NCBI GenBank assembly: GCA_019693395.1
Contig: JAAMXP010000073.1
Span: forward strand, 1 to 38,387
DNA from: Ettlia oleoabundans
Lineage: Eukaryota; Chlorophyta; Chlorophyceae; Chlamydomonadales
Direction: 5' to 3'
DNA: 38,387 bases
The position numbers and the translations under genes were made by a program. Position 1 is the first letter of the stretch; every line of letters begins with the position of its first letter. Below are positions 7,267 to 20,159 of the stretch, in pieces. The notes under the pieces are model-generated. The model did not search any database and was not told the DNA's origin. It saw nothing but the letters and a program-made list of their open reading frames with translations.

Positions 7267-13161
<5,895 letters not shown>

Positions 13162-14134: not shown

Positions 14135-17100
14135 TCAGGTGAAGGGCACAAAATGGTTTGGCAGCAGGCGCGGCCGGCAGCGCTGGCCTGGCCGCAGGCT
14201 CAGCTTGAGCACGGCGCGTTCCGGGCAGGCGCAGGCCGGCGCTTGATCGTCCCACAGCATGCGCACCAAGCACTCGACGCCCTCCACCAGCCGCGGCCCA
14301 GGACGGCAGAACAGCGGGGCATCCGCCACATACACTGCCGACGCCCTGACTGCGGGTAGCAGCCACCAGCCTGGCAGCGATGCAATGGAACAGAGGTCTG
14401 TGAGCGGGCACCGTGCACTGCCTCCATGCATGCCCGCCACAATCAGCACCTCGGGCGCGAAAGCTTGCACCTGCGACAAAAGGAACAGAGGGCAGCCGCG
14501 GGGGTGGGTCAGGCTGCAGCAGGGGGAGGAGGCCAGCAAGAGGAACAAGGACGGAGCCAAAGCCGCAGCCCGCTGACGCAGCCACAATAACAAACTCTTG
14601 AGACACGTGCCAACCAGGCAGCTAGCCAGCCAGCCAAGCAGCACAACAAGCCTGCTCACAGAAAGAGCCTGCTGCACTAAGCCCCGCACCTGCTCCCAAG
14701 TCAGGTCCACAGGCGCATCTCCTGCCTGCTCCTCCGTCCAGCAGCTGCCGCCCGCCAGCGTAACCTGGTCAGCCAGCCACCAGCCCACGGTGCGCAGTGG
14801 CCGCAGCGACTGCAGCACCAGCACACGCGGGCGGGAAGGCGCAGCGGCAGCTGCAGCTGCAGCCTCTCCTGCAACACGCCGCAGCCGCGCGCGCAGCCGG
14901 TCCACTGTGCGCAGCGCCTCCTCGCGCACACCTGCTGCCTCGCCCACCTGCAGGGCACAGGAAAGAAAGGTGAAGAGCAGCCCCTGTTCGGCAGCACTTA
15001 TGAGCTGGAAAGGGAAGAATCGGCCTTAAACAACCAAAGGACACGCCCTGCCAGCCCTCGCCCTGCCCATGCTTATGCCAGGCAACTGCTAGGCGCACGT
15101 TGCTTCCTTGTCAACTCGCCATCCGATCCCTAACACGTGCCACTCCTACCTGCTGTCTGCTGCTGTACCTAATAGCCCAGCTACTTGCATTCTCCACTCA
15201 CCACGAGCATTGAGTCGAGCACATCGCTCAGCGTGCGGCGCCGCATGCATACCACACGGCACGCTTGCTGCAGCCCAACCGCCATCAGCGCCTCCAGCAC
15301 CGCCTGCCCCATGCCGCAGCCGCCGCACATCATGGCACTGCTGGCTGCGGAGCCGTGGACACACAGCGCTGACTCCTGCTCCTCATAGACAACCAGCCCG
15401 GGGCGCTCCCGTGCCAACACCTCCTCATCAACCACAAACTCCACTTGCGTTGCCAGCTGTGCCTGTAAGTGCGGCTGCTGTGTGTGTGGCAATGGACCGC
15501 CGATAGGGCTTGCGTCACCGCCACTGGCGGCCGCTGCCAGCTGCCATGCCACGCTTCCGCGACGCTGCGCCTGCTGAGCACACGTGGGGCTTTCCCGCCT
15601 GCTGGCCGACGAGCTGGTTGCGGCGCTACTTCCCTGGCGGTCAAGCGACGAGGCGAAGGAGGGGAAGGCGGCAAAGCTGCGGCGTGCCTTCGCCCGCGCC
15701 ACAACGTCAGGAGGGAAGTCGCAGGCATCGCTGACTGCTGCCACCCTAGCACCCAAGCCCAGCGCCCACAGCAGCTCAGTTGCCCCGGGGCTCAAGCTCA
15801 CAATCTTGTCGCTGGGGGTGGGACTGCAGGCAGACGGGCGGGCAGGTGAGCAGGCAGACGTGAGCGAAAAGTTAGGGCAAACACACAGGCCAATCGGTCA
15901 AGCAGCCGGCAGGCAGCCAGAACCCACCTATGCTGCCAGTTGTAGGGCGTAGCACTGAGGGCCAGGTGGCGTGGCTCTAGCCCCGCATGCAGCTCCAGAG
16001 GGCTGGAGGAGCGAGCTGCCAGCATACTGCCGGCACTGGGGGGCCGTTCATATGACGACGACCGATGGTGCCTGCCGTTAGGAGGGCCCCATGCGCCGCC
16101 CGCGGTGCCAGTCGCGGGGTACAAGGGTGCTGCTGGTGCAGCGGGAGGATGAGGCGCGTGCGCGGCTGCTGCAAAGGCGCTGGCACTGAGGCGGCCATTC
16201 GCCAGCGGCGGAGGCGCATGCTGGTGCAAATGAGGCCAGCTGTAGCAGTTGGGAATGTGCCCCGAGCTAGCTCTTGTTGCTGCCTGCTGCTGCCGGTGCC
16301 TGCCGTTGTAAGGCAGCGACGCCATACTTTCCAACGGCAAAGGTGGAACGTGCGGAGGCTGGTGGTGCTGATGCTGACCGTAGTGCCCATTCTGCAGCTG
16401 CACATTCATATGCCCATACTGCAAATGGTGCTGCTGCCCTGCTGCTTGCATGTGTGCCGGCACGCCACCAAAGTAGCCATGCTGCGCTCCCTGTAGCTCT
16501 GGTTCACGGGGTGACAGCTGCTGCGGCGAGTCACTGAGTGGCGGCGACAGCACCTCACCGGGGGGCAGCACCCCCACACCAATGTGAGGGCTGTAACTGC
16601 TCAGTGAGTTCATGCTGACAACCTTGGACAGAGTGGTGGCAGGAGACAGCGAGCGCAGCGGCATGCCGGGCTGAGCCAGGCTGCCATGCCGCAGCAGGTC
16701 TGCAACGCCGGGGCGAGCAGGACAAGAGGGGCAGCGCAGTCAGATGTGCAGCAATAAACGACAACATCCAGCCAGGGAGAGTCAGCCATCAACGATTGCA
16801 GCACACACTGGGAAACGGTTCACAACAGCGCCAGGCGGCAAGGGCTCCTCACAGTGTGTGCCATTCTCGCCCTGGGGCAGCGACACGTGATGTCGTGCTG
16901 TGGGCAGCCCATCCTCCGAATGCCCGCGGTGCAGCTCCCCTGTCCCTGCTGCGAGCCGCTGCTTGGCCGCCAGCCGCTCATCACGTGAGAAATCGGGGGA
17001 AGATCGGCACTGCTGCACTGTTCGGCCCCCCTTGGTTGCAGACTGCACAGCAGGGACAGAAGTGCTACTATAGGGAGCAGCAAGTTTGCATTTGCAGGTG

Positions 17101-17145
17101 CAAGCAGCCTACATCAGGCAAAGACAGCGAAGAGGCTATGCACAT
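14135..17145 (-). other. BtuF/TroA-like (helical-backbone metal receptor) module
   Basis: Exons 15823-15202, 14947-14690 and 14470-14135 encode a substrate-binding-protein fold close to cobalamin-binding BtuF-type proteins. They begin with IVSLSPGATELLWALGLG and CDFPPDV, continue with LARERPGLVVYEEQESALCV and RRTLSDVLDSMLVVGEAAG, and end with a second lobe containing EVLIVAGMHGG and SLPGWWLLPAVRASAVYVAD. The family binds corrinoids or metal chelates in a cleft between two lobes joined by a long helix. Preceding it is a roughly 330-residue low-complexity region with a His cluster at about 16350-16500. There is no signal peptide, unlike bacterial periplasmic BtuF, and no permease or ATPase gene nearby, so a soluble binding role is inferred rather than classic ABC import. 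If this is a separate gene, the best start I can find is 17145. Confidence 0.8.
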
Positions 17146-20100
17146 GCCAATGATAAGTCATTGACCTTTCAGAGCTGGGCAGCCAAGGTTGAAGTTAATT
17201 TACAGCTCAAGCACAGCAGCACCCACCTTAGGCGTGCTGTGCTGGGAAGCAACCGCAGTGTCTAGGTATGCAGCCGACTTTGCCGCCTCCAGCACAGCTG
17301 CGCCCACAACCTCCAGATCCACTGATCGGCACTTGTCAACCAGGCTGGCTGCGAAGTCTGCAAAGTGTGCATTGGCAACACCGGCAGCAGCGAATCGATG
17401 TGCAAGTGTCTGCAAGCCAGCTAGCCATATACGAGTGGCCTGCGGATCCCGCAACATGAAAAGTTCGGCCACCACGGTAACCGCCTCTCTGGCCCAGTCA
17501 AATATTGCCACCCACAACCACCAAGAAGACAGCAGGAGATCCCCAGGCAGCTTGTACGAGAAACGCCGCACCTGGGCAGTTTCCAAAGTGCAGGTGCACA
17601 TAGCTGGCGAGCACATTCTGCTGGCAGAAGCCCTCCGACACCTCAGCAGCACCGGGGATCTGCGGCTGCACACGGTAGCACGTGCTCCACGCATGCTGCT
17701 CCATTGCCTGGTCGCCCACCAGGGCCTGGTCCAGCCCGCCCACCACACTCTCCTGCAACCACGAGGTTCCATGTAGATCAGCAACATTGTGAGTAGCTAT
17801 CGCTTCTACTTATTGCAGCAACAACCGAACAAGCATTGGCCTCTCCTGGCCTAGCAGCAGAGGTCGGTGCACAAATATTGAGTGCAGCTCATTGCTTGGG
17901 AAAACAGTGGCGACAAAGATAGCCACCACGTTCCTTGCTTGCCTGCACGATTTGGGAGAAGTGGTAGACCTGGCCCCGCACGGTGCGGCCTGGGGGAAAG
18001 AATGGGCAGCCCTTCTTTGTCTGCACCTCCACATAGCCCATGGTCATTTTGTTGCGAGACATGATGGTCTTGAAGGGGAACACACCCACTGCAAGCCAAG
18101 GAACAGGGCAGCTAGTTAAAACGGGTGCCCAGGAAGTGACGTCAACCTGCTGCCCCAGGGCTATGTGGCGCTCTGTGCGTTTTGCAGCGCGGGTGGCAGG
18201 CATAAAAAATGCATGGACATGTGTTTACTCGAGGGCCGCGCACCCATGGGGCTGGCAGGCTCATCCGGGCTGGGCTGAATGCTCTTGGACAGGTAGATGA
18301 GGCCGCCACACTCCGCATACATCACACCTCCCGCCTTTGCAAAGGCTGCCAGGCTGGCACGCAGAGCGCGATTCTGTGCCAGCTCAGCAGCATGCCTGCA
18401 GGTGGCGGCAGGTGGCCACAGAAAGGAAAGGAGCAGCAGTGTTTCTAACCGCATGAAGCCAACAGCACTCCTAACCAACCTCATGATTCCTGCCGCTGTA
18501 GCATGACCTCACAAGTGAGAAAGGTAGCATGACCTCCCGAGTGAGAAAGGCAGCAAAACCACTGGCACAGCCGCCAAAGCAGCTGCGGGGAGTGGGACTG
18601 CGGTGTCGCAAGCAGGCTCATTTGCAGCCCCGCTCTCACCGTTCCGGGTAGCCACCTCCAAGGTACACGCCAGCACAGTCATGTGGAAGCGGGTCTGTCA
18701 GCGGCGAGAAAAACACCAACTCAGCGCCGGCCTGGTGCAGCAGGTTGAGGTTGTCATGGTAGTAGAAGCAAAACGCGGGGTCCCTTGCTACCGCAATGCG
18801 CATCGCCGGTTTCCGCGGCGACTGCTGCCTCGGCACAGCCTCGTGTACGTCATCTGAAGCTCCGCCGTTGCCTGCTGTGACCGGCAGAGGCGGAACCTCT
18901 GCCGTTTCTCCTAGAGCCAGCAGGGCATCCAGATCCACGTGCGCCGCCACAAGCTCAGCCAGCGTGGCCACAAGGCCGGCCGGCACGCTGTCGTCACTGG
19001 GCATGTGCAGGCCCAAGTGGCGCTCAGGTACCACCACTGCCTCGCTCTGCAGTGCAGGAGCCTCACATTGGCACAGCTGAACCACCACAAAGCGGAAGCC
19101 ACATTGTATTTGGTGCAACTAACACCCAGCACGGGACGAACACGGCGGCAAGTCAGCAAAAAAGCCTGCCCACCCCTATATACAGCAACCGTCCCGCTTC
19201 CCCACCCAGCATTCAGCGCGATTGAGCGGCATGTCACCCACCTTGGGCACGCCTCCCAGCACCTCAGCTCTGATGCCAGCTGCAACCATGGCATCCTGCA
19301 GCCACTGCGTGTGTGCTGGCCCCCCAACTTTGTTGAACAAGATGCCGCCCAGGCGCAAGTCTGGATCAAACTCTATGTAGCCCTTCGCAACCGCGGCGGC
19401 GGACCGGGCCACCGCCGATGCATCTAATACCAGCACCACTGGAACTCCCAGCCACTTGGCCAGCTGCGCTGTGCTGCCCTGTTCGGTAGTGCCGTCCCGA
19501 CCGTCAAACAGGCCCATCACGCCCTCCACCACTGCCACGTCAGCACCATACGCAGCACGGTGGAATGCGCCCAGCACCTGCTCCCGGCTCAGCATCCAGC
19601 TGTCCAGGTTAATGCTGGGGCGCCCAGTGGCTGCCTCGTGATGCATAGGATCAATAAAGTCTGCAACGGCACAGGCAATTTAGCACCGGAAAGTAAGCAG
19701 GGGCTGCAGGCCCGCCAAGCTGAGCGAGTTGGCAGTCCGAGGGCGGGAGCTGCGGCAGCAGGCGCTGGAGCAAGGCGAGCGCCCACCTGGCCCGACTTTG
19801 AAGGCTTGCACGGTCAGACCCCGTTCCCTGCACAAGGAAGCAGTAAAGTTAGCGTCCCGACCCGACAGCTGCCCTCTCATCCTGCCCTCTCATCCTCCCG
19901 CTCCATGACATCCTTTGCCGTCGCAGCCGCACCTGAGGGCTGCCGCGATGCCAACAACCATAGAGCTCTTTCCCACGCCGCTGCTGGTCCCAGCTACGCA
20001 GAAGACGGCCTTGGGCGGACCCCGCCGCCCTTCTGCTGGCTCGCTGTGCTGCGGCAGGGTCATCTTTGCGGCAAACACTCTGCCATGGCTTCGGTGAACT

Positions 20101-20159
20101 CCTGGTAACCTTGAGAGCTGCCCCGCTGCTGTTGGTGCTCGTGCACGTTGGTGGCTCAA
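14135..20159 (-). CDS. Putative fused CbiA (cobyrinate a,c-diamide synthase) - BtuF-like protein
   Basis: Thirteen exons stay open in one frame: 20159-19933, 19827-19787, 19660-19242, 19046-18640, 18395-18244, 18088-17943, 17752-17572, 17486-17227, 17042-16817, 16699-15928, 15823-15202, 14947-14690 and 14470-14135 (4047 nt, 1348 residues). The order is a CbiA module (1-524), a helical stretch (about 525-611), a disordered His/Gln/Pro-rich linker (about 612-940) and a BtuF/TroA-like module (about 945-1348). The joining intron (17226-17043) has an AAG|GTGGGT donor and a pyrimidine-rich ...CTGCTGTGCAG acceptor, phase 0. If that intron is not used, the CbiA product ends at 17200 and a second gene would have to start near 17145 with an 11-codon first exon, leaving 54 bp between them. 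I favour the fusion. Weak points are the acceptor at 17487, the donor at 16816 and one GC-AG intron. A role in corrinoid salvage, amidation or delivery is inferred. Confidence 0.62.
17043..17226 (-). other. Intron joining the CbiA and BtuF-like modules (predicted)
   Basis: It is a 184-bp phase-0 intron with donor AAG|GTGGGT and acceptor CTGCTGTGCAG|T. Retaining it gives a stop nine codons later, at 17202-17200. Whether it is spliced decides between one fused protein and two proteins. Confidence 0.55.
17753..17942 (-). other. Predicted GC-AG intron in the CbiA module
   Basis: The upstream exon ends ...GTGCAG and is followed by GCAAGC, the form typical of GC-AG donors. The acceptor is GGTTGCAG at 17760-17753. 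Phase 0 on both sides joins YHFSQIVQ to ESVVGGL, matching the expected CbiA sequence. I found no GT donor that keeps the frame here. Confidence 0.6.
18498..18549. repeat. Imperfect 26-bp tandem duplication
   Basis: Two adjacent copies of GTAGCATGACCTC... (18498-18523 and 18524-18549) differ at two positions. They lie inside a CbiA-module intron. Confidence 0.85.

What the first reader, a model, noticed from the sequence alone, without database searches (positions are those of the whole stretch)
14135..20159. CbiA amidase and BtuF-like binding module apparently fused in one algal gene
Seen: the CbiA frame runs through AAG|GTGGGT (17227/17226) and CTGCTGTGCAG (to 17043) into the BtuF-like frame in phase 0, and the whole 13-exon chain of 4047 nt has no stop. 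If they are two genes, only 54 bp separate the stop from the best start. Known: CbiA amidates cobyrinate side chains; BtuF binds cobalamin for uptake. Inference: one protein could capture a corrinoid and modify its side chains, a possible salvage or remodelling module. I cannot say whether this architecture has been reported.
Basis: partly seen in the sequence, partly recalled or inferred. Interest (0 to 1): 0.88.

Follow-up and report, generated by a model that had tools for sequence, protein, structure and literature searches.

The report
Algal cobyrinate-amidase/BtuF-like fusion gene
A green-alga gene really does join a vitamin-B12-pathway amidating enzyme to a B12/heme-binding-type module in one protein, and the same joined protein turns up in other green algae, mosses, liverworts, clubmosses, dinoflagellates and water moulds, although eukaryotes are thought unable to make B12, so its job is an open and testable question.

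Summary
The fusion is real. A 13-exon minus-strand model (20063-14135, 3816 nt, 1271 aa) reads without a stop from a complete CbiA-type amidotransferase, through a linker, into a BtuF-like binding module. The best relative, from Micractinium, is 60% identical over 98% of the length and carries the same linker motifs. Over three database searches 110 of 204 sequences examined, window included, hold both modules (109 after dropping one bacterial case): green algae, liverworts, mosses, lycophytes, dinoflagellates, Triparma, water moulds. In the trees each module forms one eukaryotic clade, so one ancient fusion is likely. The second module has the BtuF/heme-binder fold (on a Chlorokybus relative) but fails the curated BtuF model. 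Its bacterial relatives lack room for a signal peptide in 49 of 50 cases, so it probably works inside the cell, not in uptake. The alga also has METE, METH and mutase pieces. Best guess: an intracellular ATP- and glutamine-dependent amidase for corrinoid acetate side chains with its own binding module; a siroheme-type substrate is a serious rival. My ten paper searches listed no report of the fusion.

The parts
19933..20063 (-). exon 1: start ATG 20063; P-loop AGTSSGVGKSS (Lys32 codon 19970-19968)
   Evidence: Pfam CbiA 3.4e-16 on the spliced protein
19787..19827 (-). exon 2: CbiA (VQAFKVGP)
19242..19660 (-). exon 3: CbiA, substrate/phosphorylation-site motifs PDFIDP (its Asp58 codon is split with exon 2) and VEGVMGLFDGRDG
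   Evidence: roles recalled
18640..19046 (-). exon 4: end of the CbiA synthetase part and start of GATase_3
18244..18395 (-). exon 5: GATase_3 with nucleophile Cys362 (YAECGGL; codon 18310-18308)
17943..18088 (-). exon 6: GATase_3; followed by the single GC-AG intron
17572..17752 (-). exon 7: GATase_3 with conserved YVHLHF (His485 codon 17596-17594)
17227..17357 (-). exon 8: CbiA C-terminus DFAASLVDKC and start of linker
17043..17226 (-). junction intron GTGGGT...GTGCAG joining the two halves in phase 0; holds stop TAA 17202-17200 if unspliced
16853..17042 (-). exon 9: linker, CRSSPD motif shared with Micractinium
15928..16699 (-). exon 10: low-complexity linker with LSPATTLSKVVS and PPLSDSPQQLSPRE shared with Micractinium; first downstream in-frame Met at 16664
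15202..15823 (-). exon 11: start of BtuF-like module (KIVSLSPGATE at 15807)
14660..14947 (-). exon 12: BtuF-like module
   Evidence: Peripla_BP_2 6.6e-4, 19.6 bits against a cut-off of 27.5
14135..14470 (-). exon 13: end of BtuF-like module (CRPGPRLVEGVE) and stop codon

Best explanation
One nuclear gene encodes one protein that works inside the cell. The N-terminal half is an intact cobyrinate a,c-diamide synthase-type enzyme: ATP activates an acetate side chain of a tetrapyrrole and ammonia from glutamine (nucleophile Cys362) amidates it. The C-terminal half has the class-III binding-protein fold used for B12 and heme, and is related to a family of signal-less bacterial proteins. Shown: gene structure, intact sequence motifs, fold of a relative, one eukaryotic clade for each half, wide conservation. 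Inferred: location, that the second half holds the corrinoid for the first, and that the substrate is an imported or damaged corrinoid with free a/c acetate groups, since this alga has B12-enzyme genes but intron-blind searches showed no CobQ-type second GATase_3 gene, CbiB, CobS or CobT. I put the single fused gene at about 0.95 and the corrinoid-amidase function at about 0.4.
Against: No activity, ligand or transcript data. Class-III folds that bind heme or iron complexes tie with BtuF, so the ligand is not fixed. The TQDxCxxC-like motif of 62 of the 109 fused rows is missing from the window. Marchantia keeps all six residues although METH was not found in liverworts, so a B12-only role does not fit neatly. 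A lone CbiA cannot complete B12 from cobyrinate. The lack of partner genes is weak evidence: the intron-blind search also missed this gene's own second half and a weak B12-binding piece that I found later. No bacterial locus of the second module had a CbiA gene nearby (0 of 80). Six relatives have long N-terminal extensions. The land-plant contrast rests on 8 related species, two of them with N-terminally short gene models.
Confidence: 0.5

Rival explanations
1. The protein is a tetrapyrrole amidase for a non-corrinoid ring, most likely siroheme or sirohydrochlorin, which carry the same a and c acetates and are made by plants, algae and water moulds (distribution recalled). The second half would bind that ring.
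For: [quoted passage not shown] DsrN, a CbiA homologue, may amidate siroheme (PMC6018796, passages). Would explain full-length proteins in liverworts and lycophytes. Heme-binding structures score as well as BtuF.
Against: The window scores 393.1 against a cut-off of 560 on the CfbB model but passes the cobyrinate model. The catalytic set is incomplete in 6 of 8 land plants, which still make siroheme (recalled). No DsrN sequence was compared.
Confidence: 0.22
2. A corrinoid chaperone or loading ATPase: the CbiA half uses ATP to drive transfer of B12 bound by the second half, and amidation is secondary or lost.
For: The nucleophile Cys is replaced in 12 of 109 fused rows and unreadable in one, while in most of these 12 the P-loop Lys and synthetase acids remain; e.g. 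Riccia, Selaginella, Elliptochloris, Picochlorum.
Against: 96 of 109 keep the Cys. Cys loss could mean use of free ammonia or simple decay; Raphidocelis has also lost the P-loop Lys.
Confidence: 0.15
3. Two neighbouring genes mistakenly joined.
For: CbiA-only proteins or models exist in some eukaryotes: Rhizophlyctis 467 aa, Closterium 484 aa, Chara 582 aa. There is a stop at 17200 if the junction intron is kept.
Against: No usable start codon before exon 10 for the second half; linker conserved across the junction in Micractinium; fused proteins annotated on long contigs of Marchantia, Physcomitrium, Ceratodon, Diphasiastrum and Selaginella.
Confidence: 0.03
4. A relic under weak constraint with no present function in this alga.
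For: Repeated loss of the Cys in several lineages; the BtuF-like module of the window is divergent (Peripla_BP_2 below cut-off; motif missing).
Against: All six checked residues intact in the window and 60% identity over 98% of the length to Micractinium.
Confidence: 0.1

Closest known systems
Cobyrinic/hydrogenobyrinic acid a,c-diamide synthase (CbiA/CobB; NF002204, TIGR00379)
   Same: Full-length match over both domains, P-loop, acidic residues, GATase Cys and His
   Different: Nuclear, intron-rich, in a eukaryotic clade of its own, fused to a second module, in organisms not known to make the corrin ring
BtuF and class-III B12/heme binding proteins
   Different: Fails the BtuF model, no secretion signal seen, covalently tied to an enzyme
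Signal-less bacterial BtuF-like proteins of Nitrospira, Acidobacteriota, Actinomycetota and others
   Same: Best prokaryotic relatives of the second module that one pattern scan found, 34-42% identity to Chlorokybus
   Different: Stand-alone; 0 of 80 loci had CbiA nearby; function unknown to me
Algal CBA1 (cobalamin acquisition protein 1)
   Same: Also described as structurally like BtuF (PMC10828217, passages)
   Different: Described as an uptake protein; not compared by sequence here
CfbB and DsrN
   Same: CbiA relatives acting on, or linked to, sirohydrochlorin-type rings
   Different: CfbB model cut-off not reached; DsrN not compared

Membership tests
CbiA/CobB cobyrinate a,c-diamide synthase | Score over the curated equivalog cut-off | tested here: met
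   NF002204 471.5 against 254; TIGR00379 409.5 against 261.4
CbiA/CobB cobyrinate a,c-diamide synthase | P-loop, acidic synthetase residues, GATase Cys and His present | tested here: met
   Window reads K, D, D, E, C, H at the six checked positions; residue roles recalled
CbiA/CobB cobyrinate a,c-diamide synthase | Amidates cobyrinate a and c side chains | not testable with these tools
   Needs enzyme assay
CbiA/CobB cobyrinate a,c-diamide synthase | Sits in a corrin ring pathway | tested here: inconclusive
   No CbiB, CobS or CobT hit and GATase_3 hits only in this gene, but the intron-blind search misses genes
BtuF | Score over the curated BtuF model | tested here: not met
   NF002894 17.2 against 234
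BtuF | Class-III binding-protein fold | tested here: met
BtuF | Secreted, signal peptide | tested here: inconclusive
   Module is internal and no signal-like start was seen by eye, no predictor was run; bacterial relatives have no room for one in 49 of 50; six eukaryotic relatives have long N-terminal extensions
BtuF | Binds B12 | not testable with these tools
   Needs binding assay
CfbB Ni-sirohydrochlorin a,c-diamide synthase | Score over the curated cut-off | tested here: not met
   NF033195 393.1 against 560
DsrN siroheme amidase | Groups with DsrN, linked to dsr genes | not tested
   No DsrN sequence was fetched

The most novel reading that the evidence does not exclude
Eukaryotes keep an ancient self-contained tetrapyrrole side-chain amidase with its own ring-holding domain, present since before green plants and the stramenopile/dinoflagellate line parted or spread between them. 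It repairs or edits acetate side chains of corrinoids or siroheme, a step that no account of eukaryotic tetrapyrrole metabolism I saw includes.
Probability: 0.35. Interest if true: 0.88.

Novelty: new variant of a known kind. Interest (0 to 1): 0.72.

Why it matters
[quoted passage not shown] A conserved corrin-pathway amidase, with its active-site residues intact in most algae and water moulds checked and fused to a binding module, does not fit that picture. It would point to unknown corrinoid repair, salvage or siroheme modification in plants and algae, and is open to direct genetics in Marchantia, which keeps all six checked active-site residues although METH was not found in liverworts (PMC11439496, passages).

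Full report
What is there. The window is contig C34 of an unnamed 32.9 Mb assembly. On the minus strand, 13 exons from ATG 20063 to the stop at 14135 give a 3816-nt frame and a 1271-residue protein. Exons 1-8 carry a complete CbiA-type enzyme. Pfam finds the nucleotide-binding domain at 3.4e-16 and GATase_3 at 5.6e-33, and the curated cobyrinate a,c-diamide synthase model scores 471.5 bits against a cut-off of 254. Exons 9 and 10 are a linker. Exons 11-13 hold a BtuF-like module that Pfam sees only weakly (6.6e-4, below cut-off).

Is it one gene? The junction intron 17226-17043 has the same donor hexamer as two other introns of the gene and keeps phase. Unspliced, the alternative start at 17145 dies after 25 codons, and the second half has no usable start before exon 10. 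The best relative, P0001 from Micractinium tetrahymenae on a 3.9 Mb contig, is 60% identical over 98% of the fused query; its linker shares several motifs with ours beyond the junction. I had no RNA reads.

Is it found elsewhere? My own profiles for the two modules (built from 8 sequences, the window among them) found both in 48 of the 80 proteins of the first search. Over all three searches they found both in 110 of 204 sequences, which are the 203 listed proteins plus the window. Dropping P0153 leaves 109. This count includes fragments, several models of one species and one reversed model (P0134). The second and third searches listed only the best 120 of 6431 and of 7964 hits, so absence from these lists means nothing. 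Holders with a name or a label include Micractinium, Nannochloris, Auxenochlorella, Prototheca, Trebouxia, Myrmecia, Elliptochloris, Picochlorum, Monoraphidium, Raphidocelis, Chloropicon, Tetraselmis, Chlorokybus, Mesostigma, Spirogloea, Mesotaenium, Marchantia, Riccia, Physcomitrium, Ceratodon, Selaginella, Diphasiastrum, Aphanomyces, Achlya, Saprolegnia, Thraustotheca, Prorocentrum, Polarella and Triparma. For Picochlorum, Tetraselmis, Chlorokybus, Mesostigma, Spirogloea and Mesotaenium the genus is my reading of a coded label (Picsp, Tetstr, Chlat, Mesvir, SM0000, Mesen), recalled and not looked up. In water moulds, Triparma and dinoflagellates the precomputed domains add Kelch repeats and DUF5522; the order CbiA, BtuF-like, Kelch, DUF5522 was checked on Aphanomyces P0035. 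CbiA without the second module was seen in the chytrid Rhizophlyctis and in the models of Chara and Closterium.

Where did it come from? In a 67-row CbiA tree the 47 rows I labelled eukaryotic form one clade (99/99, in all of 200 bootstrap trees). With 51 bacterial rows, 41 of them new from the third search, 27 eukaryotic rows again form one clade (100/99, 78 rows). The nearest bacteria include unnamed metagenome proteins, cyanobacteria and an Acidobacterium; the sister group is not resolved (81/65). Bacterial rows were limited to what the searches listed, and some rows labelled eukaryotic are unnamed metagenome proteins, labelled so because they carry the fusion. In the tree of the second module, 38 of 39 rows labelled eukaryotic form one clade (97/100) against 27 bacterial and archaeal rows picked from the 80 loci; the 39th is P0153. 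A single fusion event is the simplest reading.

Active site. At six positions chosen from recalled CbiA mechanism work, the window has all the expected residues. So do 23 of the 28 named eukaryotes outside land plants that I picked, the window included, but only 2 of 8 land plants, both Marchantia. Riccia has Gly, Selaginella Ala and Diphasiastrum Ser in place of the nucleophile Cys; the two moss models lack the N-terminal part. Of the five failures outside land plants, three have lost the Cys (Elliptochloris, Picochlorum, Raphidocelis) and two only lack the P-loop in the model (Trebouxia, Thraustotheca). Over all 109 fused rows, 96 have the Cys, 12 another residue and one is unreadable. METH is reported in land plants only from hornworts, and liverworts keep CblB and CblJ of the proteins surveyed (PMC11439496: abstract, outline, passages, sections 9 and 10). 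The decay fits a B12-linked role; Marchantia does not fit it neatly.

B12 use in this alga. METE pieces lie on C345. On C117, S-methyl_trans and Pterin_bind pieces lie in order, as in METH, in a contig that ends before a B12-binding part was seen. On C204, mutase pieces (best 6.8e-7) are followed by a weak B12-binding piece (4.2e-4, below cut-off). GATase_3 rang only in our gene. CbiB, CobS and CobT did not ring, with the caveat that split genes are missed.

How it most likely works. The first half is expected to bind ATP, activate a side-chain acetate and amidate it with glutamine nitrogen. The second half is expected to hold a ring ligand. Since the other amidations and the nucleotide-loop steps were not seen, the likely substrate is a nearly finished corrinoid that has lost an a or c amide, or a cobyrinate-level compound. 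This step is inference. The strongest rival is siroheme or a related ring, because CbiA relatives CfbB and DsrN work on or are linked to such rings (PMC7242693 and PMC6018796, passages).

Prior reports. Ten full-text searches of an open-licence library listed no paper that I could see reporting this fusion. I read passages or sections of six papers and only listings of the rest. A CobB-like protein was noted in one haptophyte transcriptome (PMC4057078, passages). A survey of B12 use in early fungi has no hit for CbiA, CobB or cobyrinic in its main text, though it names the later adenosyltransferase (PMC8085122, term search). [quoted passage not shown]

Verdict. Its function is not known, and a specialist would find it surprising.

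Noticed in passing
window 10997-11734 (+): Open frame with a partial chorismate-binding domain (Pfam PF00425, 9.4e-9), part of a neighbouring gene.
   Followed up: no
P0035, P0045, P0110, P0111, P0123: In water moulds, Triparma and dinoflagellates the fusion is extended by Kelch repeats and a DUF5522 domain, a hint that these parts act in the same process.
   Followed up: partly
L003-L082: A widespread bacterial family of signal-less BtuF-like proteins with no evident partner gene; its function deserves study.
   Followed up: partly
P0015, P0024, P0026, P0033, P0079, P0103, P0160: The GATase nucleophile Cys has been replaced by Gly, Ala or Ser in several lineages; in six of these seven the P-loop Lys remains.
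   Followed up: partly
L098 (G000:C117:9000-15370): The METH start (homocysteine-binding part) appears twice, near 10918-12589 and again at 15029-15169 at the contig end: partial duplication or assembly error.
   Followed up: no
P0153: A bacterial-looking CbiA reads on into a BtuF with a signal-like stretch, suggesting overlapping cbiA and btuF genes in that genome.
   Followed up: partly
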